Below, piece after piece: positions 44,552-61,376 of a stretch of DNA of 64,000 nucleotides. The position numbers and the translations under genes are program-made. This DNA is from Paraconexibacter algicola (GTDB lineage: Bacteria; Actinomycetota; Thermoleophilia; Solirubrobacterales; Solirubrobacteraceae): positions 1,818,978 through 1,882,977 of the forward strand of contig NZ_PYYB01000001.1 of assembly GCF_003044185.1 (NCBI RefSeq), read 5' to 3'. The notes below the pieces were generated by a model that was not told the DNA's origin, ran no database searches, and worked only from the letters and a program-made list of their open reading frames with translations. The number at the start of each line of letters is the position of its first letter. Within the stretch, counting starts at the first letter, position 1.

Positions 44552-47500
44552 ATGTCGATTCGCCGTGCTGTCACGGTCGCCCTGGCCTGGGCGACCGCCA
44601 TGACGCTTCTCCCTGGCGGTGTCGCGGGCGCGCAGGCCCCGCCGCCGACCGTCGAGCAGGTGGCGTCGATGGAGCACGGCCGCAAGCAGGGGGAGAACCA
44701 CCAGGTCGAGCTGCGGCTCGTCCCGCTCTCCGCGAACAGCACGCTCTCGCCGGGCGGCATGTTCGCCTTCGGCCACCGCGAGCCGCTGGTCTACCGGCTG
44801 CCGGCCGACGGCGAGCCCGACGCGTGGGAGCGACTCGGAGGCGTGCAGCTCGGCGTGTACAAGACCCTGTTCCCGCACCGGTACGGCTACGCGCTCGCCG
44901 AGCTTCCCGGGGGCAAGGCGCTGATCGTCGGCGGGCGCGCGGTTGCGCTCGCCGAGCAGCGGGAGTCGTTCACGACGGTCGAACGGTGTCCCGACGCCGA
45001 CCCCAATCCCTTCATCTCCGACTTCAAGTGCCCGCTCGTCGACGTCGCACTCCCGGGTGACTCGGCGGGGGTCGCCGAGCCCCTGGACGCAGGCGACCCC
45101 GACGGCGTCGCCCCGCGCTTCGCCGCCAACGCGCCGCTCTTCTTCGACGGCAACGACCTGCAGGCGATCGAGCCCTACGTCGACGGCAACGGCAAGACCG
45201 TCAACCGCTTCGAGGGCGCCACCGCCACCGCGCTGGCCGACGGTCGCGTCCTGGTCGTCGGCGGGAAGGTCGCCGACGTGACGCAGGGTGGGACGATGCC
45301 CACCACCGCGCAGACGACCGCGACCACGAAGGTCGAGATCTACGACCCCGCCAACGAGCAGTGGACTCCCGCCGCCCCGCTCAACACCGCCCGTGCGGGG
45401 CACTCGGCCACCCTGCTGGCCGACGGCCGCGTGCTCGTCGTCGGTGGTGCCGCCGACACCGACAAGACGACCGAGATCTACACCCCCGCGGATCAGCCGT
45501 CGGAGCCGGGGAGCTGGGCGGCAGGCACACCGTCGAACGTCGTCAACGGCACCCTGAGCAGGGCCGCGCGGCTCAGCGACGGCCGCGTGATGGTGGTCCG
45601 CAAGGGCGGCGCCGAGCACAGCGAGCTCTACACCCCGGAACCCGGCGCGGGCGGATCGTGGGTGAGGATCGCCCACTTCAAGCCGCCGTTCAACTCCGAC
45701 AACCCGGCCGCGAACACCTTTCCGCTCTTCGACGCCCCGCCGGAGTCGGTCGTCGCGCTGCCCGGCGGCAAGGCGTTCAGCTTCGGGAACATCTTCCCGA
45801 AGATCTACTCCGAGACGCAGGCCACCAAGGACGCGCAGCGCGAGGACGCAGCTCGACCGGACAAGACGACGTTCGGCGGTCGCATCTGGACGCCGACCGA
45901 TCTGAGTCCCGGGAAGGACTTCGACGCGCCGTACTACCAGCCCCCGGCGACCGAGAACAGCCCGAATCCCCAGCCCAGGGTGTACGGCCAGGGGGGGAAC
46001 GCCGGCATGGCGAAGCTCGCCGACGGGCGGATCATGGTCGCCGGTGGGAAGGAGTCCGACCGCCCCGGTCCGGGCAAGAGCCTGTTCCAGGTGTCGATCG
46101 CGATGCTGATCAAGAGCGCCGACGCGCCCGTGGCCACGCTCACCGCTCCGGCGAGCGGCACCACGGTCGGCAAGGACAGCACGGTCGCGTCGAGCTTCAC
46201 GTGCGAGGCCAAGGGCGCCGACCTGGCGAACCCCGGCGGTTGCACCATGAAGATCACGCCGCCCACGGGCGGCGGGCCGGCGGTCACGATCTCCACCTCC
46301 GGTGACGCGGTCCCGACGTCCTTCCCCGGCACCTACTCGATGGTCGTCACGGCGCTCGACGAGGCCGGGCTGGAGGGCACCGCGACCGGCACGTACACGG
46401 TGGCCGACAAGCCGACCGGGACGATCACCGCCCCGAGCGCCGGGCTCGTGGCCGCACGCAACGCCACGATCGCCGCGGACTTCAGCTGCAGCTACTTCGC
46501 CGCACCGGTCCCCGACAGCGGCACCGAGTCGTGCGTCGCGAAGGTCACCTCGCCGCTGAACGTCGTCACGGACATCGCCGACGGCGACAACGTGCCGACC
46601 GACGCCATCGGGACCTACACGGTGACGGTCACCGCGACCGACAAGATCGGTCAGACGGCGACGAAGACCAGCACCTACCTGATCTCCAGTGGCCCGGGAG
46701 TCGACATCACCTCCCCGGCCGTCGACGCGAAGCTCTCGGTCGGCGCGTCGCTGACGGCGGAGTTCGCGTGCACCGCGAGCGCCAAGCCGCTGACGAGCTG
46801 CGTCGCGTCGTTGACCGTGCCGGGCGGCCAGCCGGTGCCGATCACGAGCGGCAGTCCCCTGCCGACCGACAAGGTCGGGACCTACCAGCTCGTCCTCTCC
46901 GCGAGCGACGAGCTCGGTGACACCAACTCGGTCTCGCGCTCCTACGAGGTCCTGGCGCCGCCGACGGCGACGATCGACCACGCGCCGGACGGCACGAAGT
47001 TCGCCACCGGGACGAGGCTCGCCGCCGCGTTCACGTGCGCGTCGCCGGCGAGCACGATCACGTCCTGCGCGGCCACGATCACCACGCCGTCCGGGGAGTC
47101 CGGGCGCCTGATCGCCGGACGCAGCCTGCCGATGACCGTCGACGGCGTCTACACGGTGGACCTCAAGGCGACCGACGCGGTCGGGCAGACCAAGAGCGCC
47201 TCGGCGAAGTACCGCGTCGTCGCGCCGCCGACGGTGACGATCGACAGCCCGGTCAACCGGGAGTCCCAGCTGCGCGGGGAGAGCGCCCGACTGGACGGCA
47301 CGCCGTTCAAGAGCGGCTACTCGTGCACCTCGGACGGCAGCGAGATCACCGCGTGTGCGGGCACGATCACCGCACCTTCGGGAACCGAGGCGCCGATCGC
47401 CAGCGGCGATCAGCTCCCGTCGGACACGCTCGGCGACTACAAGGTCGTGGTCAGCGCGACCGACGCGCTCGGGCAGACCGACTCGCGCACGCGCACGTAC

Positions 47501-49975
47501 ACCGTCAGCAACTGTCGCAAGGGCTTCGAGTTCGCGCTCGTCCAGGTCCGGACCAAGGGCTGCTTCGAGACGGTCAGCGGGACCCCGACGCGGTACGAGA
47601 CGGCCGACGAGATCACGGTCAACGGCCTGACGATCCCGGCGCCGCCGAGCGGCTCCAAGACGGTGTTCACCGCGCCGTCCGACGATCACCCCGGCGGCCA
47701 GCTGGGCATCAGGACCGCGGAGCTGAAGGTCGGCACCTTCACGTACTTCAACGGCCCGATCCAGTGGGATCTGCCCGAGGGTGGAGTCGGCGACGAGGGG
47801 ACGGTCGCGACGCTGCAGGTGCCCTCGGGGGCCGCGTTCCAGGGCCTGCGGGTGCGTGGATCGATCGCCCTGACCTTCGGACGCAAGGACGACGGCAAGT
47901 ACTACACGTCGATCCCGATGCAGGTGGCGCTGCCCTCGCAGTTCAGCGCCAACCCCGGCAGCGGGGCGGAGGTGACCGCGGCGGCGTCGATCTACGTCGA
48001 CGCCAAGGGCCCGCGCTTCGACGGCACCGTCCTCAACGTCAAGAACGTGTGGGTCGGCAAGCTCAAGGTCGACGAGGTCTGCCTGTCCTACGTCCCCGCG
48101 GGGGCGAGCAAGGCGATCGCGCCCTGCCCGGCCCCGGACATCGGCGGCGAGCCGTACATCACCTGCAAGAGCGACCCGAACACCAACCGCTGGAACGGCA
48201 ACGCGACGATCACGCTGCCGACGGAGTCCGAGACGCAGCTGGCGATGTTCGGCGGTCTGGCCGATGGCCAGGTGTCGAGCCTCGGCGGCGTCGTCAGCAA
48301 GCTCGGCAAGTCGGTGCCGCTCGCGCCGAACGTGTACCTCGACCAGATCGGCGTCGGCCTGTGCCTGAGGCCGCCGCCGTTCAAGCTCAAGGGCTCGGTC
48401 GGCGTCTCGATCCTGCCGACGGGCTCCAAGAGCACGATCGGCGTGGACGGCTCGGTCACCTACACCGACGGCACGGCCAGTGAGCCGTGGTCGCTCGAGA
48501 TGCGCGGAAACATCTCCGTGCTCGACAACCGCCTCGGCGGCGGCGGGGTCACGATCCGCCCGACCGGCCTGTTCGACTTCGACGCGGGCCTGAAGCTGCG
48601 ATTCAGCATCCTCTCCGTCGAGGGTGGGGTCGTCGGCTGGGTCGACGTCCCGAGCCGCACGTTCAACATCGACGGCAAGGTCCGGGCCTGCGTCTCGTCG
48701 ATCTGCGCCCAGGCGCTCGCGACCCTGTCGAGCGTCGGCGCCGCCGCCTGCCTGGATCTCGGCGTCATCAAGGTCCCGTACCCCTACCCGGCCCCGGACT
48801 GGAAGTGGTACGCCCCGTGGCGGATCATCATCAGGTACGTGGAGACCCAGCTGAAGGGTGGCGGGGGCCTGAAGTGGAACGGGACGGTGAAGGCCTGGGT
48901 CGCCAGCTGCGACATGGGGGACTTCCAGGCGCGCAGGCCCGGAACGCGGTCGTTCCGCGCCGGCACGGCCAACACCCGGATGGAGGTCACGATCAAGCCC
49001 GAGGAGCCCACGAAGGTGATCCAGCTCTCCGGCGTCGACGGCCCGCCGTCGGTGAAGGTCGCCGGTCCGGACGGCACGACGATCACCAACCCCACCGACG
49101 GCAGCGGTGGCGCGCAGGACCCGGGCAAGTGGCTGATCACCGAGAACCCCGACGACAAGTCGACGACGATCGTGCTGATCAACCCGAAGGCCGGTCGCTG
49201 GACGATCACCAAGGGTGACGGCCCGATCGCGCCGCTGGACCTCAAGACGGCCGACTACAGCCCGCCGCCGACGTTCAAGGCCGCGGTCACCAGTCCGAAG
49301 AGCCTCGCGCGGAAGGGTCAGAAGCGCTTCAGCGTCGCCTACACGGTGGACGACGGTGAGAAGGTGCAGCTCGTCGACGAGAGCGTCGACGGCAAGCTCC
49401 AGGGCACGATCGTCAAGGAGCTGAAGGGCTCGTCCTGCGGGCACGGGGCGCCGAAGACGGTGCTCGGCTCGGTGCTGCGCTGCGCGACCGTGGCGTTCAC
49501 CCCGACCGAGGGCCCCGGCGGTCCGCGCCGCGTCTACGCGGTCGTCACCCGGGCCGACGGGATGCCGCGCAGTCGCGACCACGTGGCCAGCTACGTGGCG
49601 CCGCTCCAGCGGACGCCGGGGATGGCGCAGCGGTTGCGGATCCGCCGCACGCCGAAGGGGAAGGGCGTCGTCGTGACGTGGAGCGCGTCGCGGCCCGCCA
49701 AGTGGCAGACGCTGTCGATCTCGCTCACCTCCGGTGAGAAGTTCGGGGCCCGCGCCAGCAAGTGCACGTCGCTGCACATCCCGTGGGTGGCCAAGAGCGT
49801 CGGCGTCAACGTCCGGGTCGCCGGCGTGCGGTCGGACATGGTCACCGGCAAGTACTCCCTGGTGCAGCTCGCGCCGGACAAGAAGAGCGCCGGCCCGAGC
49901 CGCGGGCTGCGGGACCGGGCCTGCCGGATCCAGTACGTGCCCCGGCCGGTGGCCCCGCCGCTCCCGGGCGAGTAG
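44552..49975 (+). CDS. giant exported kelch / Ig-repeat protein with novel C-terminal module
   Basis: An 1807-residue exported protein. Signal peptide (1-30), then a kelch/galactose-oxidase-like propeller (about 35-520; GRVLVVGG repeats and TKVEIYDP). Five Ig-like repeats of 80-95 residues with a paired Cys follow (about 525-985, each ending GTYxVxVxATDxxG). From residue 987 to the end is a region of about 820 residues I do not recognise, starting NCRKGFEFALVQVRTKGCF. It shares ordered motifs with the protein at 58533 (GLCLRP, SSVGAAAC, WLITENP). AAGGAG supports ATG 44552. No anchor is seen. Control by the adjacent double TetR is inferred. Confidence 0.75.
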   Translation: MSIRRAVTVALAWATAMTLLPGGVAGAQAPPPTVEQVASMEHGRKQGENHQVELRLVPLSANSTLSPGGMFAFGHREPLVYRLPADGEPDAWERLGGVQLGVYKTLFPHRYGYALAELPGGKALIVGGRAVALAEQRESFTTVERCPDADPNPFISDFKCPLVDVALPGDSAGVAEPLDAGDPDGVAPRFAANAPLFFDGNDLQAIEPYVDGNGKTVNRFEGATATALADGRVLVVGGKVADVTQGGTMPTTAQTTATTKVEIYDPANEQWTPAAPLNTARAGHSATLLADGRVLVVGGAADTDKTTEIYTPADQPSEPGSWAAGTPSNVVNGTLSRAARLSDGRVMVVRKGGAEHSELYTPEPGAGGSWVRIAHFKPPFNSDNPAANTFPLFDAPPESVVALPGGKAFSFGNIFPKIYSETQATKDAQREDAARPDKTTFGGRIWTPTDLSPGKDFDAPYYQPPATENSPNPQPRVYGQGGNAGMAKLADGRIMVAGGKESDRPGPGKSLFQVSIAMLIKSADAPVATLTAPASGTTVGKDSTVASSFTCEAKGADLANPGGCTMKITPPTGGGPAVTISTSGDAVPTSFPGTYSMVVTALDEAGLEGTATGTYTVADKPTGTITAPSAGLVAARNATIAADFSCSYFAAPVPDSGTESCVAKVTSPLNVVTDIADGDNVPTDAIGTYTVTVTATDKIGQTATKTSTYLISSGPGVDITSPAVDAKLSVGASLTAEFACTASAKPLTSCVASLTVPGGQPVPITSGSPLPTDKVGTYQLVLSASDELGDTNSVSRSYEVLAPPTATIDHAPDGTKFATGTRLAAAFTCASPASTITSCAATITTPSGESGRLIAGRSLPMTVDGVYTVDLKATDAVGQTKSASAKYRVVAPPTVTIDSPVNRESQLRGESARLDGTPFKSGYSCTSDGSEITACAGTITAPSGTEAPIASGDQLPSDTLGDYKVVVSATDALGQTDSRTRTYTVSNCRKGFEFALVQVRTKGCFETVSGTPTRYETADEITVNGLTIPAPPSGSKTVFTAPSDDHPGGQLGIRTAELKVGTFTYFNGPIQWDLPEGGVGDEGTVATLQVPSGAAFQGLRVRGSIALTFGRKDDGKYYTSIPMQVALPSQFSANPGSGAEVTAAASIYVDAKGPRFDGTVLNVKNVWVGKLKVDEVCLSYVPAGASKAIAPCPAPDIGGEPYITCKSDPNTNRWNGNATITLPTESETQLAMFGGLADGQVSSLGGVVSKLGKSVPLAPNVYLDQIGVGLCLRPPPFKLKGSVGVSILPTGSKSTIGVDGSVTYTDGTASEPWSLEMRGNISVLDNRLGGGGVTIRPTGLFDFDAGLKLRFSILSVEGGVVGWVDVPSRTFNIDGKVRACVSSICAQALATLSSVGAAACLDLGVIKVPYPYPAPDWKWYAPWRIIIRYVETQLKGGGGLKWNGTVKAWVASCDMGDFQARRPGTRSFRAGTANTRMEVTIKPEEPTKVIQLSGVDGPPSVKVAGPDGTTITNPTDGSGGAQDPGKWLITENPDDKSTTIVLINPKAGRWTITKGDGPIAPLDLKTADYSPPPTFKAAVTSPKSLARKGQKRFSVAYTVDDGEKVQLVDESVDGKLQGTIVKELKGSSCGHGAPKTVLGSVLRCATVAFTPTEGPGGPRRVYAVVTRADGMPRSRDHVASYVAPLQRTPGMAQRLRIRRTPKGKGVVVTWSASRPAKWQTLSISLTSGEKFGARASKCTSLHIPWVAKSVGVNVRVAGVRSDMVTGKYSLVQLAPDKKSAGPSRGLRDRACRIQYVPRPVAPPLPGE

Positions 49976-50005
49976 CGCTGCGCGGCGTCACGGCGTCGAC
50001 ATCAG

Positions 50006-50047
50006 GCGTGGTGGGTGGGGATCGTGTGCGATGCCCACCCACCACGC
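50006..50047. terminator. long hairpin between giant gene and MFS gene
   Basis: Perfect 14-bp arms GCGTGGTGGGTGGG (50006-50019) and complement (50034-50047) with a loop that holds ATCG/CGAT. ATCAGGCGTG (50001-50010) can instead pair with 50057-50066. Convergent genes, so probably bidirectional. Confidence 0.7.
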
Positions 50048-50065
50048 GCCTGCCGTCACGCCTGA

Positions 50066-51745
50066 TCAGACCGGGGCGGGACCGGGAGAGGGCGCGGGGT
50101 GGAGCTTCGCGATCTCCTCGGCGACGCGGCGCTCGTGCGCGCGGGCGTCCTGCGCGGCACGTCCCGGATGCCAGCGTCCCGGCATGCGCAGCGACAGCGG
50201 CAGGACGAGGAGCTGGCCCACGAAGCAGATCCACCACCACTGCCGCCACTCCCGGGGGCCCTCGGTGACGGCCGCCTGGACGGCGGCGCCGTGCCGGGCG
50301 ACGTAGGCGAGATCGCCGTCGGGGATCGCACGGGCGGCGCGCAGCCCGGCGCGCGCGTCGTCGAGCGCGCCCAGCTGCGCGATCGCCCTCGACTTGACCT
50401 TCTTGTCCTCGGGGTCGGCCTTGTGCGCGGCGAACAGCTCGGGCTCCAGCAGGCCGATCGTCCGGAGGCCGAGGGCGTGCTGCTTGCTGATCGCGGCGAC
50501 CCGCTCGCCGTGGTTGACGAGGACGGCCGGCGCGCTCACCAGCGCCATGAACGCGAGCAGGACCGCGACGACGAACCCGCGCACGACCGCTCCGTACACC
50601 GCCATGCCCCGGGCGATCGCGGTGGGATCGATGCGCTCGACGGTCTCGGTGAAGAGCGCCAGCCACGTCGTCGCGACCGTCCCGCCCGCACCGGCCAGAA
50701 GGACGAGCAGGACGACGAACTCCTCGTAGGACGTGTCCGGCTTCGTGGCGCGGTCGGCGAACACCGCCAGGGCTGCGGCGGAGACGAGCGCGCCGCCGAG
50801 GAGGAGGGGCTTGCGGACGCGCAGGCGGTCGGAGACGACGCCCGCGGTGACCAGGGCGATCGCGCTCGCGACCCAGTACCACGAGGCCAGGCCGTTCGCG
50901 CGGGACGGGTCGTACCCGAAGTTCGCGACGAAGTAGAGGACGAAGAACCCGACGCGCGTGGCGTAGAACATCAGGAAGAGGCCGATGCCGACTGCCGGGA
51001 TGACGAGCGCGGGCACCCACATGGAGTTGACGCCCGTCGTCACCGTGCCCGAGGACGACCGGGCGCGGGCCTCCACGAGCGCGCGCTCGCGGGCGGTCAC
51101 CATCACCTGGTCGCGCAGCGCCGGGGAGAGCTCGCGCAGGCCGACGAAGGCGACGACGAACGCGACGGCACCGAACACGCCCGCGACACGGAAGTGGTAC
51201 TCCCACGCGGGGTGGTCGGGCACCATGTCGCTGGTGATCGCGCTGATGAGCAGGCTGCCGAGCGACGGTCCGAGCGCCCAGACGCCCATCGCGGTCGCGC
51301 GGCCCATCTGCGGGGAGAAGTCCCGGACCAGCGCGGACGTCGTGACGAGCACGACCCCGCCGACGAGGCTGAGTCCCGCGTACACGACGAGGTAGGACGC
51401 GATGTCCGACATCGCCGGGAGGACGACGCCCGCGAGGACCGCGGCGATCGCGAGGCCGCAGAGGACGAGGTTGCACCGCCCCCACCGGTCGGCGAGGCCC
51501 GCGGCCCACGCGGCGGCCGCGCCGATGGCGTTGCCCACGACCGAGACCAGGACGAACGTCCAGAGGGGGATATCGAAGTCCGCGATGAGCAGCGGAGAGA
51601 GCGCCCCCTGGAGGTAGATGAGGTAGAAGGTCACCGTCGTCGCGACGGTGACGACGAACAGGCAGGCGGCCCGCCGGGAGGGCGACGGGTACTCGGCGAG
51701 CTCGCGTCGCCGGCCGGCGACGCTGGACGGGGGGGTGTCGGACAT
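50066..51745 (-). CDS. MFS transporter with long extra loop
   Basis: A 559-residue transporter with about 12 helices. The loop after helix 2 is GLADRWGRCNLVLCG, the MFS D(R/K)xGRR-type motif, and a second copy is VSDRLRVRKPLLLGG. Between the penultimate and last helices is an unusual soluble insert of about 115 residues (HGERVAAISKQHALGL to EGPREWRQ) rich in charged helix. The start is ATG 51745 (MSDTPPSS). Substrate unknown. Confidence 0.75.
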   Translation of the reverse strand: MSDTPPSSVAGRRRELAEYPSPSRRAACLFVVTVATTVTFYLIYLQGALSPLLIADFDIPLWTFVLVSVVGNAIGAAAAWAAGLADRWGRCNLVLCGLAIAAVLAGVVLPAMSDIASYLVVYAGLSLVGGVVLVTTSALVRDFSPQMGRATAMGVWALGPSLGSLLISAITSDMVPDHPAWEYHFRVAGVFGAVAFVVAFVGLRELSPALRDQVMVTARERALVEARARSSSGTVTTGVNSMWVPALVIPAVGIGLFLMFYATRVGFFVLYFVANFGYDPSRANGLASWYWVASAIALVTAGVVSDRLRVRKPLLLGGALVSAAALAVFADRATKPDTSYEEFVVLLVLLAGAGGTVATTWLALFTETVERIDPTAIARGMAVYGAVVRGFVVAVLLAFMALVSAPAVLVNHGERVAAISKQHALGLRTIGLLEPELFAAHKADPEDKKVKSRAIAQLGALDDARAGLRAARAIPDGDLAYVARHGAAVQAAVTEGPREWRQWWWICFVGQLLVLPLSLRMPGRWHPGRAAQDARAHERRVAEEIAKLHPAPSPGPAPV

Positions 51746-51893
51746 CCTGCGTGCGCGTCCTGGGTGTGGAAGGTGGGGTGAGCGGGCGCGCGGTCGGGCG
51801 CGCGCGCCTGAGGCTAGCGCCCTCGTCGTCGGCGTCGCGGATGGCTCGCCGTGACCATCGCCCGACCGGTACACGTCCAGGTCGGGCGGGAGA

Positions 51894-51966
51894 TGGCACC
51901 TCCCGGACTTGAACCGGGGACACCACGATTTTCAGTCGTGTGCTCTACCAACTGAGCTAAGGCGCC
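51894..51966 (-). tRNA. tRNA-Phe (GAA)
   Basis: A 73-base cloverleaf on the minus strand beginning GGCGCCTTAGCTCAGTTGG. The anticodon stem-loop is CACGA-CTGAAAA-TCGTG, giving anticodon GAA. The T arm has GGTTCAAGTCC, and the acceptor ends AGGTGCC with discriminator A. CCA is not encoded in full. Confidence 0.93.
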
Positions 51967-51976
51967 AGGGCCGCAC

Positions 51977-51982
51977 AGGATA
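51977..51982 (-). promoter_or_regulatory. -10 hexamer of tRNA-Phe
   Basis: TATCCT on the minus strand, 10 bases before the tRNA 5' end. No clear -35 was found. Confidence 0.35.
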
Positions 51983-52046
51983 GCGGGACTCCCGCGAGCG
52001 TTGCGCTCCGACGGTCGGGCGTCCCATCCGTCGGGTCGGGAGCGGT

Positions 52047-52052
52047 TACGCT
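52047..52052 (+). promoter_or_regulatory. -10 hexamer TACGCT of the DUF3352-like gene
   Basis: TACGCT lies 9 bases before ATG 52062. Confidence 0.4.
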
Positions 52053-52061
52053 CGCAGCCCC

Positions 52062-53699
52062 ATGTCGCCGCGCACCCTCACGCTGATCCCGATCGTGGTG
52101 GTCGCGGTCTTCCTCGGTCTGCTGGTGCTCATCGTGACCGGGGGCGGCGACGACGACGGCGGGAGCGGCAGCGCGGCGACCGCGGAGATCGCCGACCCGC
52201 TCGCGGAGGCGCTGACCTTCGTGCCGACGGACGCGCCGCTGGTCGGGGTCGTCGAGACGGACACGGCGGCCGGTCCCGCCGCCGCGCTCCAGGCGCTCGG
52301 CGGGCGGATCCCGGGCGCGGCGCTCGCGAGCGGCGCGCTGGGCGAGCTGCTCGGCGACCAGGAGCTCCAGGCCGAGCTGCTGCCGCTGCTCGGCAACCCG
52401 CTCGTGGTCACCGCCACCGAGCTCCCGCGCGAGGACGCGACGCCCGCGCCCGCCGGCCTGCCGTTCCGCGTGCCGTCCCCGCGCCGCCTCGCCGAGCACG
52501 TGCGCGTCGCGACCGTCGTGCGCGACCGGGCCGGCCTCGACGCGATGCTCGACCGCATGACCGGCACCGGGATGCTGCAGCGCGACGGGGAGAGCCGCGG
52601 CTTCGACCGCTACACGCGCACCGACGGCGCGTCGCTCGCGGTCGACGGCCCGGTGCTCGTCGCGACCGGCTCGCGGACCGACCTCGGACAGGCGCTCACG
52701 CTCCACGCGCGCGCGACCCGCGGCGGCGGCGCCGCCGGCGGCGACGGGACCGGGGCGCTCACGCCCGTCGGCCTGCGCGAGCGGCTCGCCGGCCTGCCCG
52801 GCCGTGGCGCCGCCGTCGCGCGCATCGCCGCCGACGTCGAGGAGCTGCAGGACGCCGACCTCAGCGAGCTCGAGGTGCCGTGGCTCAGCGCGCTGCGGCG
52901 CGTCGCCCTGGCGCTCGTGCCGTCCGAGGACGGGCTCGACGTCCGCTTCCGGCTCGCCACCGACCCCGAGAGCGTGACCGACGGGGACGTGCCGATCGCC
53001 ACCGGTCCGGAGACCGCGTCGCCCGCCGCGCAGGAGGACGCGCCGGTCGTCGTCGGGATCCGCAACGTCGCGCACACGATCGAGTTCGTGCGCCGCACCC
53101 TGCGCTCCACCGCGCCCGAGCTCGCCGCGCAGGTCGACGGGGTCGAGTCGAGCCTGCGCCGCCTCGCGCGCGTCGACCCGTCCTCCCAGCTGCTGCTGAA
53201 GCTCACGGGCACCACCACGGTCACGCTCGGGCCCGGCGGCGGCGTCGAGGTCCGGGCCGAGGTCCGCGACCCCGAGATGATCGAGGACGTGCTGCGGCGC
53301 CTGCCGAGCGCCGCCGCGGGCGGGGCGCTCACCGGCGGCGTCTCCGGGGAGGTCGACCTCGCGGGGATCGCCCTGCGCGACCAGGGCGACGGCACCTACG
53401 TCGTGGAGCGGGACGGCGGGCCGCTCGCGCGCGTCGCCGTGCTCGGCGAGGCGCTCGTGGTCAGCACCGACGACAGCACCGACCTGCAGGCGCTCGCCGA
53501 CGCGTTCCCCGAGTCGCCGTCGGAGGGCGCGCGCGGTGCCCTCACCGCCCGGGTCAGCGCCGAGGAGGCGATCGACCTCGTCGGCCTCTCACCGGACCTC
53601 GCCGAGGCGCTCGGCACGTTCGGGACCGTCACCCTGCAGGCGCGCGGGGAGACCGAGGCGGTCTCCGGCTCGATCGGCCTCGTCGAGGGCGACGAGTAG
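52062..53699 (+). CDS. DUF3352-like membrane-anchored protein
   Basis: A 545-residue protein with one N-terminal helix (about 5-27), a Gly/Asp/Ser linker and a large outside part. The opening PLAEALTFVPTDAPLVGVVETD, with later DRAGLDAMLDRM and GPVLVATGSR segments, resembles DUF3352, a family with no known function found in Thermoleophilia and other bacteria. Two Ala/Gly-rich halves may be repeats. It converges on the CAP-domain gene with 8 bases between stops. Confidence 0.65.
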   Translation: MSPRTLTLIPIVVVAVFLGLLVLIVTGGGDDDGGSGSAATAEIADPLAEALTFVPTDAPLVGVVETDTAAGPAAALQALGGRIPGAALASGALGELLGDQELQAELLPLLGNPLVVTATELPREDATPAPAGLPFRVPSPRRLAEHVRVATVVRDRAGLDAMLDRMTGTGMLQRDGESRGFDRYTRTDGASLAVDGPVLVATGSRTDLGQALTLHARATRGGGAAGGDGTGALTPVGLRERLAGLPGRGAAVARIAADVEELQDADLSELEVPWLSALRRVALALVPSEDGLDVRFRLATDPESVTDGDVPIATGPETASPAAQEDAPVVVGIRNVAHTIEFVRRTLRSTAPELAAQVDGVESSLRRLARVDPSSQLLLKLTGTTTVTLGPGGGVEVRAEVRDPEMIEDVLRRLPSAAAGGALTGGVSGEVDLAGIALRDQGDGTYVVERDGGPLARVAVLGEALVVSTDDSTDLQALADAFPESPSEGARGALTARVSAEEAIDLVGLSPDLAEALGTFGTVTLQARGETEAVSGSIGLVEGDE

Positions 53700-53707
53700 C
53701 CGCGCGG

Positions 53708-54388
53708 CTACCGCGTGCCGAAGTTCTGGACCGCGTACCCGTCGACCCAGGCGGGACCGATGAGCGTGTAGACCGGGTCGAGGATGTTGCGCTTGTGGCC
53801 CGGGCTGGCCATCCACCCGCGGCACGTCGCCTCGGCGCTGGAGAAGCCCATCGCGATGTTCTCGCCCATCGCGCGGAACGGGAGCGCGCCCTGGAGCGCC
53901 GCCTCGATCCGGTCCCACGGGGTGCGGCCCTCGGGCGTCTCGTGGGAGAAGTAGGACCGCTGCGACATGTCGGCGGCGTGGCCGCGCGCCGCCCTGGTCA
54001 GCGACGCGTCGATCTGCAGCGGCCCGATGCCGCGCGCGGCGCGCTCGCGGTTGGCGCAGTCCATCACGCCCTGCTCGAGCGCGCTGATCGTCACGGTCTC
54101 GACGACCGTGTCCACCGGGGTCGGCGGCTGCGTCTCGTCGACCGGCTCGTCGTCCTGCACCGGCGGGGTCGGCGTCACCGGGCGGACCGGGCGGCGGACC
54201 GGCTTGCGGCACGCCCGCCGGACGGCCTTCTTGCGCGCGGCGCTCGAGGACTTCTTCGCCTTGGCCTTCGCGGCCTGGCAGGCGGTCGGCTTGCGCTTCG
54301 CCTTCGCGTCGGCGGACGCGGGGGCGGCCGAGCCGACGAGCAGGACGGCGGCGAGGAGGAGGAGCAGCAGCTGACGGAACGGTCGCAT
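53708..54388 (-). CDS. exported CAP/SCP-domain protein
   Basis: A 226-residue exported protein: signal peptide (1-27), a Lys/Ala/Arg-rich then Pro-rich stretch (about 28-90), and a CAP (SCP/PR1/YkwD) domain (about 100-226). Domain marks are ALEQGVMDCANRERAARGIGPLQID, ADMSQRSYFSHETPEGRTPWDRIEAA, GENIAMG, and WMASPGHKRNILDP. CAP proteins are secreted and often bind metal or lipid. I start at ATG 54388; GTG 54391 is adjacent in frame. Confidence 0.83.
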   Translation of the reverse strand: MRPFRQLLLLLLAAVLLVGSAAPASADAKAKRKPTACQAAKAKAKKSSSAARKKAVRRACRKPVRRPVRPVTPTPPVQDDEPVDETQPPTPVDTVVETVTISALEQGVMDCANRERAARGIGPLQIDASLTRAARGHAADMSQRSYFSHETPEGRTPWDRIEAALQGALPFRAMGENIAMGFSSAEATCRGWMASPGHKRNILDPVYTLIGPAWVDGYAVQNFGTR

Positions 54389-54423
54389 CACGACCTCGGT
54401 CGGCAGCTCGCCGTCCCACCTGC

Positions 54424-54454
54424 GACATCCGGCCGTCCGATGTGGACGGATGTC
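54424..54454. terminator. bulged hairpin after M23 gene
   Basis: GACATC and CGTCC on the left (with a 4-base bulge between) pair with GGACGGATGTC on the right around GATGT. It lies 15 bases past the M23 stop on the minus strand, before the CAP gene. Confidence 0.4.
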
Positions 54455-54469
54455 CGGCGCGTGTCGCGG

Positions 54470-55468
54470 TCAACGTCCGGCCCACGCCCGCAGCTGCGGG
54501 AGCGGGTCGACCGGGGTCGAGCGCGCGTCCACGCGCCAGCCGCCCGTCCAGATCTCGAAGTGCAGGTGCGGCCCGCTCGACGCGCCCGTGTTGCCGACGT
54601 CGCAGACCCGCTGTCCCGGGGTCACCGGCTGGCCGGCGCGCACGACGACGGTCTGCGCGCGGCAGTGCGCGAAGAAGAACGAGCGGCCGTCGACGGCGTC
54701 GATCACCGCGTACCAGCCCGCCCCGTCGCGCTGGTAGTCGACCGCGCGCACGGTGCCCGCCGTCGGGGCGACAACCGGCACGCCGCGCGCCGCGACGATG
54801 TCCTGGCCCTGGTGGACGTGCCCGTCGCGAGCGGCGCCGAAGCGCGCGCCGTCCCCGCCGAAGCTCCACGGGCCCTGCACCGGGAACACCCCGCCGGCCC
54901 GCACGAGCGGGGCGCTCGGGGTCGGGGTCGGGCTCGCCGCCGGGGTCGGGATCGCCGCGGGGCGTGGGGCGGCGCGCACCACGAGGCTCGCCCGTCCCGA
55001 CGCGCGGGCGCGGCGCAGCAGCGTCCCGCCGCCCGGACCGGTGGCGTGCAGGCGCACGGTGTAGCGGCCGGCGACCAGGCGCGTCCCGCGCGGCCAGCGG
55101 ACCGTGATCGTGCGGCCGGTCCGGACCCGTCCCAGACCGACGCGCAGCACCTGCCCTGTGCCACGCGCCGGCCAGAGAACGAGTCGAGCCCGCACCGTCA
55201 GCACCCCCTGCTGCTCGATGCGGAAGGTGATCCGCGGCGGCGTCGTCCCCTCCGTCACGCTCCCCGGGCGGACGCGAAGGGACTGCGCCACGGGCCGCGG
55301 ATCCCGAGCCGAGAGGACCACCTGGCCGTACTCGGCTCCACCCGACCCACCGTGCGTGGGCGGCACCTGCGCGCCTCCGGCCGACGCGTCCGCGGAGCTC
55401 GCGAGCGCACCGGCGACCGTCGCGACGAGCGCGCAGGTCGGCAGGAGGGACTGGCGGGGACCGGCCAC
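54470..55468 (-). CDS. exported M23-family peptidase, second copy
   Basis: A 332-residue M23 zinc peptidase: signal peptide (about 1-28), a beta domain (about 50-160), a Pro/Thr linker and the peptidase core. HVHQGQDIVAARG supplies the first His and Asp ligands; HLHFEIWTGG the HxH pair; FAHC lies at the conserved AHL position, so the usual Leu is Cys here. The start GTG 55468 is the first plausible one before the signal peptide. It is divergent from the LuxR regulator. Confidence 0.8.
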   Translation of the reverse strand: MAGPRQSLLPTCALVATVAGALASSADASAGGAQVPPTHGGSGGAEYGQVVLSARDPRPVAQSLRVRPGSVTEGTTPPRITFRIEQQGVLTVRARLVLWPARGTGQVLRVGLGRVRTGRTITVRWPRGTRLVAGRYTVRLHATGPGGGTLLRRARASGRASLVVRAAPRPAAIPTPAASPTPTPSAPLVRAGGVFPVQGPWSFGGDGARFGAARDGHVHQGQDIVAARGVPVVAPTAGTVRAVDYQRDGAGWYAVIDAVDGRSFFFAHCRAQTVVVRAGQPVTPGQRVCDVGNTGASSGPHLHFEIWTGGWRVDARSTPVDPLPQLRAWAGR

Positions 55469-55519
55469 GACCGGACCATCGGCCCGCCCGCGCGCGACCG
55501 CACCCCGGTGTGCAGCCTT

Positions 55520-55552
55520 GTGGAGGTTTCGGGCGGAACGGGTGGAGGTTTC
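55520..55552 (+). promoter_or_regulatory. 22-bp-spaced direct repeat before LuxR regulator
   Basis: GTGGAGGTTTC occurs at 55520-55530 and 55542-55552, exactly 22 bp (two helical turns) apart. It lies between the divergent M23 and LuxR starts. Likely activator or autoregulatory site. Confidence 0.5.
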
Positions 55553-55601
55553 CGCCGGGAAGCGGCAGGTTCGGCGGCTCGACCGGGCTCTGGACGCGCC
55601 A

Positions 55602-55607
55602 TATAGT
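55602..55607 (+). promoter_or_regulatory. -10 hexamer TATAGT of the LuxR regulator
   Basis: TATAGT lies 9 bases before GTG 55617 and is near consensus. GGAG between them could also serve translation. Confidence 0.55.
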
Positions 55608-55616
55608 GGAGCGGAC

Positions 55617-58439
55617 GTGAGCCCGGGGGGACCCACCGGCAGGCCGATGCTGCAGCGGGAGGCAGAGCTCGCGCGGCTGCACGCCCTGTGCGCCGCCGCG
55701 GCCGACGGGCACGGGGCGCTCGCCTTCGTCGAGGGGCACGCCGGCATCGGCAAGACCCGGCTGCTGGACGCCACGGTCGCCGCGGCGACCGACCGCGGGC
55801 TCGGGGTGCTGCGCGCCCGCGGTGGGCTGCACGAGCAGGGCGACGCCTACGGGATCGTCCGGCAGCTGCTCGGGTTCGTCCTCGACGAGCGCCCCGCGCT
55901 GCTGCACGGTCCCGCCGCGCTCGCGACCGGAGTCCTGGAGGGCCGCGCGCAGCCCGGGGCCGACAGCCCGTTCCCGGTCCTCCACGCGCTCCACCGGGTG
56001 CTCGTCTCGCTGCTCGCGGACGGGCCGCTGCTGCTCGTGGTCGACGACGCGCACTGGGCCGACGAGCCGTCGCTGCGGCTCCTGGACGTGCTCGCCGCCC
56101 GGGTCGACCGGCACCCGCTCGCGCTCCTCGTCGCGGCCCGACCGCGACGCCCGGGCCGCGACGACACCGCCCGCCTGCTCGCCGCCCTGCGCGCCCGCGC
56201 ACCCGACGCGCTCGTCGAGCCCGCCCCGCTGGGCCCCGCCGCCGTGCGCGAGCTGCTGGCCCGCGACGGCGCCCCCGCCCCGCGCGACGACGTCGTGCGC
56301 GCCTGCGTCCAGGTGACCGCCGGCAACCCGTACCTGGTCGGCGAGGTGGTGACGAGCCTCGAGCGCGCGGGGCGAACCCCGGCGACCGCCACGGAGGCGG
56401 AGATCCGCGGCCTGGGCCCCGCGTCGATCGCCGCGTCGCTGCGCCTGCGCCTGTCCGTGCTGCCGCCGTCGATCGAGGCCGTGGCCGAGGCCGTGTCGAT
56501 CCTCGCCCCCGCGGCGGAGATCCGGCACGTCGCCGCGCTCGTCGACCGCCCCGGCGACGAGGTGGCGGTCGCCGTCGACGTGCTCGCGGGCCTCGGGATC
56601 CTCGCGCCGCGTCGCCCGGTGCGGTTCACCCACCCGATCGTCGCGCAGGCCGTGTCCGAGGAGCTGCCGCCGGCGCAGCGCGCCCGGCTGCACCGTCGCG
56701 CGGCCGACGCGCTGCTGGCGGAGGGGCAGCCGCCGACCCGCGCCGCGTCGCACCTGCTGCGCTGCGAGGCGGCCGGCGACCCGGAGGTCGTCGCCGTGCT
56801 CCGCGCCGCCGCGGTGACCGCGCTCGCCCAGGGGGCCGCGACGCCCGCCCGCCGCTACCTCGACCGGGCGCTCGCCGAGCCGCCCGCCCTTCCCGACCGC
56901 CCCGGGCTGCTCGGGCTGCTCGGCCAGGCGCTCGCCGCCGAGGGCGCCGATCTCGACGAGGCCTGTCGCCGGTTCGAGGAGGCCGCCGAGCTGGAGCCGA
57001 CGCTCGAGGCGGCCGCCGTCCACCTCGAGCACGCTGCGCGGCTGCGGCTCTTCTCCGGCGATCCGGCGCGCGCCCTGCGGCTGCTCGACCGGCCCTTCGC
57101 GCGCGGGACCGTCGACCGCGAGACGACCCTGCGGCTCCGGGCCCACCAGGCGTCCATCGGCGTGCTCGCCCCGCTGCACGGCCGCCCGGAGCTGGAGCGC
57201 CTGGAGCAGTGGGCCGCGCTGCCGGGCGACACCCCGGGGGAGCTCGCCGTGCTTGCCGAGCTCGCCGCGGCACGCTGGCTGCAGGGACGCATCCGCGACG
57301 CCGCCGAGCTCGCGCAGCGCGCCCTCGCGGGCGGGCGGCTGCTCGCCGCCGAGGGACCGCTGTCGACCGGCTTCAACCACGCGCTGCACGTGCTGCTGGA
57401 CGCCGACCGCCACGATCTCGCCGAGCCGGTGCTCGGGGAGGCGCTCGCGCTCGCCCGGGCGCAGGGCGCCACCCTCGCCGCGAGCAGCCTGCTCGGCCTC
57501 CGCGCGGTGGCGCTGTGGCGGCGCGGCGACGTGCCCGGCACGCACCGCGCGGCGCAGGAGGCACTCGCGCTGCTGCACGAGGTCAGTCCGGGGATGGCCG
57601 GTCCGGCGCAGGCCGGGTACGTGGCGCTCGCCGCGGTCGAGCTCGGCGATCTCCCCGGGGCGCAGGCCGCGCTCGACGGTGCCGGGCTCGTGTCGCAGCT
57701 GCACGACCTGACGTTCCTCGGCGCGCCGTTCGACGCCCGCGCGCGGCTGCAGCTCGCCCGCGGCCGGTCCCGGGAGGCGCGGGACACGCTCGAGGGACTC
57801 GCGGACCGCGACCGTCGGCTGGGGCTCGGGCACCTCAGCACGCCGTGGCGTCGCACCGCCGTCGAGGCGGCCCTCGCCCACGACGCCCGCGAGGACGCGC
57901 GGACGATCGCCGACGAGCAGCTGCGCCGCAGCGAGCGGTGGGACGTCCCCTCCGCGCGCGGGCTCGCGCTCGCCACCAGCGGGCTCGTCACCGCCGGCCC
58001 CCGCGGGATCGAGCAGCTGCGCGCCGGCATCGCGCTGCTGGAGCGCTCGCCCGCCCGCCTGGACCTCGCCCGCGCGCAGCTGGATCTCGGACGCCTGCTG
58101 CGCCGCGAGCGCCGCGAGACCGACGCCCGCGACCCCCTGCGCGCGGCGCTCGACCTCGCCGACCGCTGCGGTGCCGCGACCCTCGCCGACCGGGCCCGCG
58201 AGGAGCTGCTCGCCACCGGGGCGCGGCCGCGCGGCGCGCGGACCAGCGGTGACGCCGCGCTGACCGCGGGCGAGCGCCGCATCGCCCGGCTGGCCGCCGC
58301 GGGGCGCACGAACCGCGAGATCGCCGCCGAGCTCGTCCTGTCCGTGCGGACCGTCGAGAACCACCTCGGCCGCGTGTACGGCAAGCTCGGGATCGGCTCC
58401 CGGCACGAGCTCGCAGCCGCGCTCGAGCCCGAAAGATGA
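55617..58439 (+). CDS. large ATP-binding LuxR-family regulator (LAL type)
   Basis: A 940-residue regulator of the MalT/LAL kind. Walker A is GHAGIGKT (40-47) and Walker B is LLLVVDDAHWAD (about 140-150). A long helical, TPR-like region (about 380-850) follows, with many Ala/Leu repeats. A LuxR HTH ends it (about 880-938: LTAGERRIARLAAAGRTNREIAAELVLSVRTVENHLGRVYGKLG). Such proteins activate operons in response to an inducer. It starts at GTG 55617, and its stop lies inside a palindrome. The following two-gene exported-protein operon is a likely target. Confidence 0.83.
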   Translation: MSPGGPTGRPMLQREAELARLHALCAAAADGHGALAFVEGHAGIGKTRLLDATVAAATDRGLGVLRARGGLHEQGDAYGIVRQLLGFVLDERPALLHGPAALATGVLEGRAQPGADSPFPVLHALHRVLVSLLADGPLLLVVDDAHWADEPSLRLLDVLAARVDRHPLALLVAARPRRPGRDDTARLLAALRARAPDALVEPAPLGPAAVRELLARDGAPAPRDDVVRACVQVTAGNPYLVGEVVTSLERAGRTPATATEAEIRGLGPASIAASLRLRLSVLPPSIEAVAEAVSILAPAAEIRHVAALVDRPGDEVAVAVDVLAGLGILAPRRPVRFTHPIVAQAVSEELPPAQRARLHRRAADALLAEGQPPTRAASHLLRCEAAGDPEVVAVLRAAAVTALAQGAATPARRYLDRALAEPPALPDRPGLLGLLGQALAAEGADLDEACRRFEEAAELEPTLEAAAVHLEHAARLRLFSGDPARALRLLDRPFARGTVDRETTLRLRAHQASIGVLAPLHGRPELERLEQWAALPGDTPGELAVLAELAAARWLQGRIRDAAELAQRALAGGRLLAAEGPLSTGFNHALHVLLDADRHDLAEPVLGEALALARAQGATLAASSLLGLRAVALWRRGDVPGTHRAAQEALALLHEVSPGMAGPAQAGYVALAAVELGDLPGAQAALDGAGLVSQLHDLTFLGAPFDARARLQLARGRSREARDTLEGLADRDRRLGLGHLSTPWRRTAVEAALAHDAREDARTIADEQLRRSERWDVPSARGLALATSGLVTAGPRGIEQLRAGIALLERSPARLDLARAQLDLGRLLRRERRETDARDPLRAALDLADRCGAATLADRAREELLATGARPRGARTSGDAALTAGERRIARLAAAGRTNREIAAELVLSVRTVENHLGRVYGKLGIGSRHELAAALEPER

Positions 58440-58454
58440 GTGGTCACCACTCAT
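58436..58454. promoter_or_regulatory. palindrome overlapping LuxR stop
   Basis: ATGAGTGG (58436-58443), TCA, CCACTCAT (58447-58454), perfect 8-bp arms. It includes the LuxR stop codon and lies about 80 bases before the next start. Could be an operator or a short terminator stem. Confidence 0.5.
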
Positions 58455-58532
58455 GAGATGCCTGCGGGTGACGGGCAGGATCGGGCCTGCACGGGGACCC
58501 CACCCCGGCGCGCTCCGAAAGGCAGCAGTCCC

Positions 58533-61376
58533 ATGTCCGTCCGTCCGCGGCTCCGTGCCGCGCTCCTCGCCACGCTGCTCGCCGTCACCGGCTCCGCGAT
58601 CATGGCCGCGCCGTCCCACGCGGCCGTCGAGATCCTCAGCCGCGGCTTCGCGCCCGATCCGGCCGTCGAGGGCGGCCAGGCCACCCTCACCGTCGACGTC
58701 ACCGTCGGCCAGGCCCCGTACATCGTCGAGTTCTTCTGCTGCGACGCCACGAACATCGACACGCCGGCGCAGACGAAGGTCCTCCAGGAGACGAGTCCCG
58801 AGACCCAGGGCCTGCGCGGCACCCACGCGTTCACGTTCGACGTCGGCGCCGCGGGCACCCCCAACCGCACCGTCACCGTCCGCGTCACCGACTCCACCGG
58901 CGCCCAGCAGCGTCAGGCCCTCGCCTTCCAGCCGCCGACGCGCGCGACGCCCCCGGTCCCGGTCACGCCGCCCGAGCCCGCCGGGCCGACCCGGGTCGAG
59001 AACTGCCCCAAGACCGTCGAGTTCACGCTCGTGCGCCTGCGGACGACCGGCGGCTCCTGCTGGCAGGAGATGCGCGCCGGGACCGACGCGCTCACGCTCG
59101 GCGGCGTCGCGCTCGAGCCGCGCCAGCGGTTCTTCCAGACCGCGGACCGGTTCGTGCTCAACGGCATCCCCTTCCCCGCGGCCCCGGACGGCACCACCTA
59201 CGTGCTCGGCGCGCCGACCCAGCGGGCGCCCGGCGGCACGCTCGGCATCGACCGCAGCGTCGAGGTGAAGCTCGGCCCGGTCACCGTGCTGCGCGGCCAG
59301 CTGCTGTGGAAGCTGCCCTCCGGCACGAGCGAGGGCGCGCTGCCGGCGATCACGCTGCCCGCCGGGCGGCTCGGCGGCCTGCCGATCGGCGGCCAGGTGC
59401 AGGCGATCTTCCGCAAGCGCGCCGGGCGCTTCACCACGTCGTTCCCGATCAGCGTGACGCTCCCCTCGATCTTCCGGCCGTCCCCCGGGACCACCGGGGC
59501 GATCACCGGGCAGACCGAGATCTCCACCGACGACGCGCGCGGCGTCAGCGTCGACGGCGGCCGCATCGAGGTCGCCAACGCGGCGATCGGCAAGGTCGCG
59601 CTGAAGAACCTCTGCTTCTCGTACCTGTCGGCGAACGTGTCACGCAGCTTCGCGGCGTGCGAGCCGCCCTCGCTCAACGGCGCCCCGGCCGTGCAGTGCA
59701 CGCCGCCGTCCCAGCGCCAGGAGCGCTTCGACGGCTCCGTGCTGATCGGCCTGCCGACGCCGTCCCGCGCGGACTTCGCCGCCTACGGCGGCATCGCGGG
59801 CGGCCAGTTCGCCTACGCGGGCGGGTTCGTCGACAACGCGCGGATCCCGCTCGTGCAGGGCATCACCCTCGAACGGGTCGGCTTCGGCCTGTGCCTGCGT
59901 CCCGACGTCGTCGTGCGCGGGGACGCGGGCCTGGGCTTCGCCAACGGGCTCGTCCGCGGCGACGTCTCCGTCACCTACGCCGAGCAGGGCCGCACGTTCT
60001 TCGTCGAGGCGGCCGGCTTCCTGCGCGTCGCCGACATCCCCGTCGGCAACGGCCGCGTGCGCGTCAACAGCAACGGGGTCGTCGACTTCGACGTCAACGC
60101 CAGCGTCCTGCTCGCCGGCGGCTTCGTCCAGATCAACGGCGGCGTCTCCGGCTTCGTCCAGCCGCGCCCGTTCCTGTTCAACCTCGACGGTCGCGTCGCG
60201 CTGTGCCTGAACCTCGGGATCTTCGGCTCGCCGTGCGTCGCCCAGGCGTCCGCGACGGTGTCGAGCCTCGGGATCGGCGGCTGCGGCGAGTTCAAGTTCA
60301 TCGGCGCCTTCAGCGGCTTCTTCTTCTACCAGACCCCCCGCAACGGGAAGCGGTTCGACTTCGGCGCCGGCTGCGGCTTCCAGTCCCGCGTGCGGATCGC
60401 CCGGCCCCGGCAGATCGGGCCGCAGGAGCTGACGTTCCCCGTCCCGCCGGACAACGACCAGTACGTGCTGCACGTGCAGGGCGTCGGCAAGCCGCCGAAG
60501 ATCCTCGTCACCAGCCCGACCGGCCGCACGTTCCAGTCCGGCCCCGACGCGCAGACCACCGACAACGCCACGTTCCTCATCGTCGAGAACCCCGAGGCGC
60601 CCGAGACGAGCGTGTTCTTCAGCAAGGACGCGGTCGCGGGCGGCTGGAAGGTCCGGGCGCTCGAGGGCAGCCAGCTGGCGGGCGCCGAGTTCCAGGCCGA
60701 GGAGAAGCGGCCGACCGTCGTCGCCGGCACGATCCGCGCCACGCGCGACGGGCAGCGCGAGCTCGACCTGCGCTACCGGCTGCGCGAGGGGGACACGGTG
60801 ACCCTCGACGTCGTCGGCAAGGACTTCCAGCAGCCGATCGCGTCCGGCCTGCGCGGCCGGCCGTGCACCGGCGGCCGGCGGGCCCCCGGCTCCACGACCG
60901 CCGAGTCCCGCTGCCGCACGCTGCGGTTCCGGCCCGCGTTCGGCTACGAGGGGCGGCGGATCGTCCGCGCGATCGTGCTCGACGCCCAGGGGGCCGAGCA
61001 GGACCGCTTCGACGTCACTTCCTACATGGCGCCCGCGCCCGCCACGCCGCGGCGGACCCCGGCGCTGCGCCTCGTGCGCCGCGGCAGCGACGTCTTCGCG
61101 GTCTGGGGACGGACCGGGGGGAACACCACCCGCTACGCGGCGTACGCGACGCTCGGGGACGGCCGCCGGCTCGGTCACACGGCCCCCGCCGACTGCCTGG
61201 CGTGGCGGATCGGGCGGGTCCGGCGCGACGTCCCGGTGACGTTGCGGATCCAGTCCGGCCGCCAGGACATCCGCTTCGGCCGGACCGCCAGCGTCACCCT
61301 CCGGGCCGGGGCGAGCTACGCGGGGCCGCGCGCCCTGCGCTCCGCCCGCCTCCCCCGAGCCTGCGCCTCGATCTGA
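58533..61376 (+). CDS. exported protein sharing the novel C-terminal module
   Basis: A 947-residue exported protein: signal peptide (1-31), a beta domain (about 32-130), a Pro linker, then (157-947) a region homologous in order to residues 987-1807 of the giant protein at 44552. Paired motifs are NCPKTVEFTLVRLRTTGGSCW, GFGLCLRP (about 449), FNLDGRV, SATVSSLGIGGC and FLIVENPE. No known domain is recognised in it. It is followed by a coupled start (TGATG) of the next exported protein. Control by the upstream LuxR protein is inferred. Confidence 0.7.
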   Translation: MSVRPRLRAALLATLLAVTGSAIMAAPSHAAVEILSRGFAPDPAVEGGQATLTVDVTVGQAPYIVEFFCCDATNIDTPAQTKVLQETSPETQGLRGTHAFTFDVGAAGTPNRTVTVRVTDSTGAQQRQALAFQPPTRATPPVPVTPPEPAGPTRVENCPKTVEFTLVRLRTTGGSCWQEMRAGTDALTLGGVALEPRQRFFQTADRFVLNGIPFPAAPDGTTYVLGAPTQRAPGGTLGIDRSVEVKLGPVTVLRGQLLWKLPSGTSEGALPAITLPAGRLGGLPIGGQVQAIFRKRAGRFTTSFPISVTLPSIFRPSPGTTGAITGQTEISTDDARGVSVDGGRIEVANAAIGKVALKNLCFSYLSANVSRSFAACEPPSLNGAPAVQCTPPSQRQERFDGSVLIGLPTPSRADFAAYGGIAGGQFAYAGGFVDNARIPLVQGITLERVGFGLCLRPDVVVRGDAGLGFANGLVRGDVSVTYAEQGRTFFVEAAGFLRVADIPVGNGRVRVNSNGVVDFDVNASVLLAGGFVQINGGVSGFVQPRPFLFNLDGRVALCLNLGIFGSPCVAQASATVSSLGIGGCGEFKFIGAFSGFFFYQTPRNGKRFDFGAGCGFQSRVRIARPRQIGPQELTFPVPPDNDQYVLHVQGVGKPPKILVTSPTGRTFQSGPDAQTTDNATFLIVENPEAPETSVFFSKDAVAGGWKVRALEGSQLAGAEFQAEEKRPTVVAGTIRATRDGQRELDLRYRLREGDTVTLDVVGKDFQQPIASGLRGRPCTGGRRAPGSTTAESRCRTLRFRPAFGYEGRRIVRAIVLDAQGAEQDRFDVTSYMAPAPATPRRTPALRLVRRGSDVFAVWGRTGGNTTRYAAYATLGDGRRLGHTAPADCLAWRIGRVRRDVPVTLRIQSGRQDIRFGRTASVTLRAGASYAGPRALRSARLPRACASI

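What the first reader, a model, noticed from the sequence alone, without database searches (positions are those of the whole stretch)
47510..61376. Unrecognised ~800-residue C-terminal module in two exported proteins
Residues 987-1807 of the protein at 44552 and 157-947 of the protein at 58533 share motifs in the same order: an NC(R/P)K opening, GLCLRP, FN(I/L)DG(K/R)V, an Ala/Ser-rich Cys segment, and (W/F)LI(T/V)ENP. The N-terminal parts differ (kelch plus Ig repeats versus a short beta domain). I know of no family with this content. It may be a new surface-protein module with interchangeable binding heads.
Basis: partly seen in the sequence, partly recalled or inferred. Interest (0 to 1): 0.72.

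Follow-up and report, generated by a model that had tools for sequence, protein, structure and literature searches.

The report
Secreted-protein module with swappable heads
Two exported proteins of a soil-type actinobacterium share an 800-residue, disulfide-rich tail that belongs to a large, undescribed protein family in its bacterial class; the tail is joined to many different binding domains and about 60% of it matches no known family.

Summary
The shared part is a real family: 67 of 146 genomes of the same GTDB family carry it, up to about 10 copies each and 7 in this genome. It is rarer elsewhere in the class and nearly absent outside it. It has two parts. The first ~470 residues are all-beta and match nothing in Pfam, NCBIfam or PDB sequences. 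The last ~300 are less new: a small beta domain, then two fibronectin-III-type domains (Z 11.6 for the last). The heads do vary: kelch plus Ig, PKD, Big_13, propellers, a hydrolase-like domain, or none. They follow the clades of the module tree and are not shuffled freely. In one genus the module proteins sit in a translationally coupled four-gene operon with a propeller protein and usually an LCAT/palmitoyl-thioesterase-like hydrolase. No Asp, Glu, His or Lys is invariant, so the module is probably a binding or assembly scaffold, not an enzyme. The fold of the 470-residue core and its ligand remain unknown.

The parts
44552..49975 (+). first module protein P0001, 1807 aa: signal peptide, kelch head, Ig-like repeats, module
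44633..46111 (+). head of P0001: kelch/galactose-oxidase-like propeller (end approximate)
   Evidence: Pfam Kelch_4, Kelch_6, Kelch_1 above cut-off; same head in L052
46112..47503 (+). about five bacterial Ig-like repeats, each with a Cys pair (borders approximate)
   Evidence: Bact_surface_Ig-like and Big_13 above cut-off; Cys positions
47504..49972 (+). C-terminal module of P0001, 823 aa
47504..48913 (+). orphan all-beta core of the module, residues 1-470, with 10 of the 14 conserved Cys
   Evidence: AlphaFold2 model; no Pfam/NCBIfam/PDB-sequence match; Cys columns
48977..49228 (+). small all-beta domain with the WLITENP motif, possibly jelly-roll/GBD-like
   Evidence: strands; only weak GBD_Hemicentin hits, E 0.14: fold inferred
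49256..49876 (+). two fibronectin-III-type domains
   Evidence: VIA-align Z 11.6, rmsd 1.9 over 87 residues for the last; about Z 11 with rmsd about 11 over the pair; PDB sequence match E 0.004
58533..61376 (+). second module protein P0002, 947 aa: signal peptide, short beta head, module
58623..58934 (+). short beta head of P0002 (AVEILSRG type)
   Evidence: strands (low confidence); same opening in L070, L152, L153, L054
58995..61373 (+). C-terminal module of P0002, 793 aa
   Evidence: FN3-type pair at 60705-61313
61376..63952 (+). exported PPC + P-domain + MAM + Flg_new_2 protein; its ATG overlaps the stop of P0002 (TGATG), so probably co-translated
   Evidence: not found at other module loci

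Best explanation
The region is the conserved C-terminal module of a family of large exported proteins of Thermoleophilia. It is a disulfide-stabilised all-beta scaffold of about 800 residues: an orphan ~470-residue beta core, a small beta domain, and two FN3-type domains. Each paralog joins this constant part to a different N-terminal head that gives specificity (kelch propeller plus Ig, PKD or Big_13 stalks, other propellers), and a few have no head. I think the constant part does the shared job outside the cell: it docks to a common partner, either an envelope component or sister proteins in an extracellular complex, while the head binds a carbohydrate, lipid or surface target. Shown: homology, export signals, domain order, variety of heads, the coupled operon in one genus, and the lack of an enzyme-like conservation pattern. 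Inferred: that it binds rather than catalyses, that the module is the docking part, and that the proteins stay at the cell surface.
For: Pairwise E 2e-89. 67 of 146 genomes of the family have the profile. Signal-peptide-like starts in 61 of 71 members, and the module is C-terminal. Seven pairs' worth of conserved Cys, which suits an extracellular protein. The invariant columns of the 17-row core alignment are mostly Gly, Pro and Cys, with no Asp, Glu, His or Lys. Heads differ between clades. Headless members L154-L156 show that the module stands alone. In genus g12, ATGA-type overlaps join a propeller or PKD protein, one or two module proteins and an LCAT/PPT-like hydrolase, or a module protein with a hydrolase-like head.
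Against: No anchor is conserved, so the proteins could simply be released. The model of the P0001 module has pLDDT 76.6 but pTM only 0.47, and the P0002 model is poor, 63.8. No ligand, partner or expression data exist. The operon with the hydrolase is in one genus only; neither window gene has such a neighbour.
Confidence: 0.6

Rival explanations
1. The beta core is a lipid- or hydrophobe-binding groove. Its amphipathic antiparallel strands form a large curved sheet, and the module carries lipid or acyl substrates for partner hydrolases of the LCAT/palmitoyl-thioesterase type.
For: Module residues 294-397 form successive 10-12 residue strands, most with strongly alternating hydrophobic and polar faces. 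In genus g12 the module genes are translationally coupled to an exported hydrolase with LCAT and Palm_thioest matches and a SHSYGG nucleophile motif; one module protein there carries a hydrolase-like head with weak Palm_thioest/DUF7379 hits (L148), and its L066 counterpart resembles it but has no Pfam hit.
Against: The same alternation occurs in any beta-sandwich. AsmA (PF05170) has no match in this genome while the control genomes ring. The hydrolase link is seen in one genus only.
Confidence: 0.2
2. It is an ordinary adhesin stalk: the core is made of divergent Ig-like or FN3-like domains that only space the head from the cell.
For: The C-terminal domains are FN3-type and many heads are PKD, Big_13 or Ig.
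Against: No Pfam Ig or FN3 model reaches the core in any of 17 members. Profile self-comparison finds no internal repeat. The core is conserved through its whole length with invariant Cys, and headless members keep it.
Confidence: 0.2

Closest known systems
Fibronectin type III domains (for example integrin beta-4 FN3, tenascin)
   Same: the last two domains of the module have this type of fold
   Different: they cover under 30% of the module; the orphan beta core and the WLITENP domain have no counterpart
Modular exported proteins with PKD, Big_13 and kelch domains
   Same: signal peptide, beads-on-a-string heads, no enzyme domain in most members
   Different: these share an 800-residue constant C-terminal module and lack the usual sortase or membrane anchor
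LCAT / palmitoyl-protein thioesterase-like exported hydrolases
   Same: encoded in the same coupled operon in genus g12, and a hydrolase-like domain without a recognisable nucleophile motif heads two module proteins there
   Different: the module itself has no hydrolase motif
AsmA/TamB-type beta-groove lipid carriers
   Same: only a loose likeness recalled from memory: amphipathic beta strands in a long meander
   Different: no profile match, fully exported with a signal peptide, many disulfides; fold not testable here

Membership tests
The module family itself | profile match over the full ~794 positions | tested here: met
   both window proteins score 1041 and 878 bits; both are rows of the profile, so the independent test is the pairwise E 2e-89
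Fibronectin type III | FN3 fold in the last ~90 residues of the module | tested here: met
   Z 11.6, rmsd 1.9, 87 aligned; second model agrees
Fibronectin type III | FN3 domains in the first 470 residues | tested here: inconclusive
Kelch propeller (head of P0001 only) | kelch repeats | tested here: met
   Kelch_4, Kelch_6, Kelch_1 above cut-off; L052 has E 2e-25
Sortase-anchored surface protein | C-terminal LPXTG-type signal and membrane segment | tested here: not met
   0 LPXTG in 71 members; membrane-like tail in only two distant relatives, L161 and L162
AsmA-type lipid carrier | AsmA profile match and beta-groove fold | tested here: inconclusive
   no PF05170 match in the genome while controls match; fold comparison of the core not possible

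The most novel reading that the evidence does not exclude
The 470-residue disulfide-rich beta core is a new fold that binds a hydrophobic or envelope ligand, and the paralogs with different heads form multi-protein extracellular assemblies, in some genera together with an exported LCAT-like hydrolase.
Probability: 0.2. Interest if true: 0.75.

Novelty: new variant of a known kind. Interest (0 to 1): 0.47.

Why it matters
Thermoleophilia are, to my knowledge, common in soil and little studied. A family with up to about ten paralogs of 1000-2000 residues per genome is likely a sizeable part of their exported proteome, yet no library used here names its core. Naming it would annotate many large proteins at once and give a defined target for structure work and for asking how these bacteria build their surface.

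Tried and rejected
Pfam, NCBIfam and PHROGs scans of the module gave only weak, scattered hits above E 0.01. PDB sequence search with the core profile gave nothing at E 10. Foldseek against PDB and BFVD and two VIA-align runs returned lists filled by FN3 domains, so the core is untested by fold, not shown to be new. Internal repeats by hhalign: none. A conserved gene neighbourhood across genera: the widest-spread families besides the module proteins are LuxR/AAA-type and response-regulator-like genes near 4-5 of 28 sequence sets, which I take as chance. The downstream PPC/P-domain gene is not conserved. Phage contigs and plasmids: no relative. A first scan of named genomes with P0002 alone found none. 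Literature searches found nothing on the family. AsmA membership: no match.

Full report
Check of the observation. The two proteins start at 44552 and 58533, both with a plain Sec-type signal peptide. BLASTP aligns 985-1801 of the first with 155-945 of the second at E 2e-89 and 30% identity.

Spread. The window lies in a 4.74 Mb genome. With a 17-member profile (A1) the family is found in 67 of 146 genomes of the same GTDB family. A single-sequence search finds it in 28 of 299 genomes of the class. In a 396-genome sample of the phylum 12 match; those outside the class are a divergent pair in G572, one in G437, and one in G336 that covers only the FN3 part. Named relatives are Patulibacter minatonensis DSM 18081, other Patulibacter and Solirubrobacteraceae; the class is Thermoleophilia. 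Most genomes of the phylum give no match, so the profile is specific. This genome has seven paralogs. No relative was found in viral contigs or plasmids.

Anatomy. AlphaFold2 with an eight-sequence alignment gave pLDDT 76.6 and pTM 0.47 for the P0001 module, which is all beta. Residues 1-470 are a run of about 30 strands. Six of the strands between 294 and 397 alternate strongly between hydrophobic and polar residues. Residues 492-575 form a small beta domain with the WLITENP motif. Residues 585-791 are two FN3-type domains; the last matches integrin beta-4 FN3 at Z 11.6, rmsd 1.9 over 87 residues, and the P0002 model agrees, although its overall pLDDT is only 63.8. A PDB sequence match to tenascin-R at E 0.004 points the same way. 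Fourteen Cys columns, an even number, are conserved. The core has no Pfam, NCBIfam or PDB-sequence match and no internal repeat. Its novelty is therefore open.

Heads. Pfam scans of the N-terminal parts show kelch plus Ig (P0001, L052), PKD once to six times (L064, L068, L159), Big_13 three times (L066, L151), DUF5122 propeller plus PKD (L060), a BNR-like propeller at sub-threshold score (L165) and a sub-threshold pectate-lyase-like adhesive domain (L158). L154-L156 have little more than a signal peptide. On the module tree P0002 belongs to a well-supported clade of seven, four of them from another GTDB family; several members share the AVEILSRG-type opening of the head. P0001 groups with the other kelch protein of this genome. 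Head types therefore change between clades rather than within them, with the labels taken from the scans above and from reading the sequences.

Context. In genus g12 (L055, L069, L148, L150) genes follow each other with stop/start overlaps such as ATGA or with spacings of a few bases. In L055 they encode a PD40 propeller protein with Calx-beta, two module proteins, and an exported hydrolase with LCAT and Palm_thioest matches and a SHSYGG motif. In L148 and L066 the last gene is instead a module protein with a hydrolase-like head; the head is a weak Pfam match in L148 and has none in L066. In the window the stop of P0002 overlaps the start of an exported PPC/P-domain protein, but this pairing is not conserved.

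Mechanism. The invariant columns of the 17-row alignment contain no Asp, Glu, His or Lys, which speaks against catalysis by the module. A constant, disulfide-rich C-terminal part with variable heads, and members without heads, suggests that the constant part has its own job: docking to an envelope component or to sister proteins. The coupled operon supports assembly with partners, but only in one genus. Surface attachment is not shown: 0 of 71 members have an LPXTG signal, and the two membrane-like tails belong to the distant G572 pair.

Verdict. I rate it a new variant of a known kind, modular exported binding proteins, with an orphan core that could prove more.

Noticed in passing
window 33799-39366: 1855-aa exported protein combining an endonuclease/phosphatase domain, a metallophosphatase with 5'-nucleotidase C-terminal domain, and Big_3_5 repeats.
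   Followed up: partly
window 6930-9323: 797-aa exported protein with seven FG-GAP_2 repeats.
   Followed up: no
window 31077-33656 (-): 859-aa exported protein with a sub-threshold match to membrane dipeptidase M19.
   Followed up: no
window 55104-58439: Large LuxR/AAA-type regulator directly upstream of P0002 on the same strand; similar regulators lie near the module genes in L064, L069 and L155.
   Followed up: partly
L054:8321-11201: The G036 ortholog of P0002 is split into two overlapping frames (652 and 370 aa): a frameshift in the gene or in the assembly.
   Followed up: no
L161, L162: Two ~3470-aa proteins about 34 kb apart in an actinobacterium of another class, with a collagen-like stretch in the head of L161 and LVVTG/LAYTG plus a membrane segment at the C-terminus.
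   Followed up: partly
L164, L165, L166, L063, L081: A divergent branch of the family has a ~450-aa head of its own, in some members opening with a YRSPGFKG-like motif; L165 has weak BNR/PQQ propeller hits.
   Followed up: no
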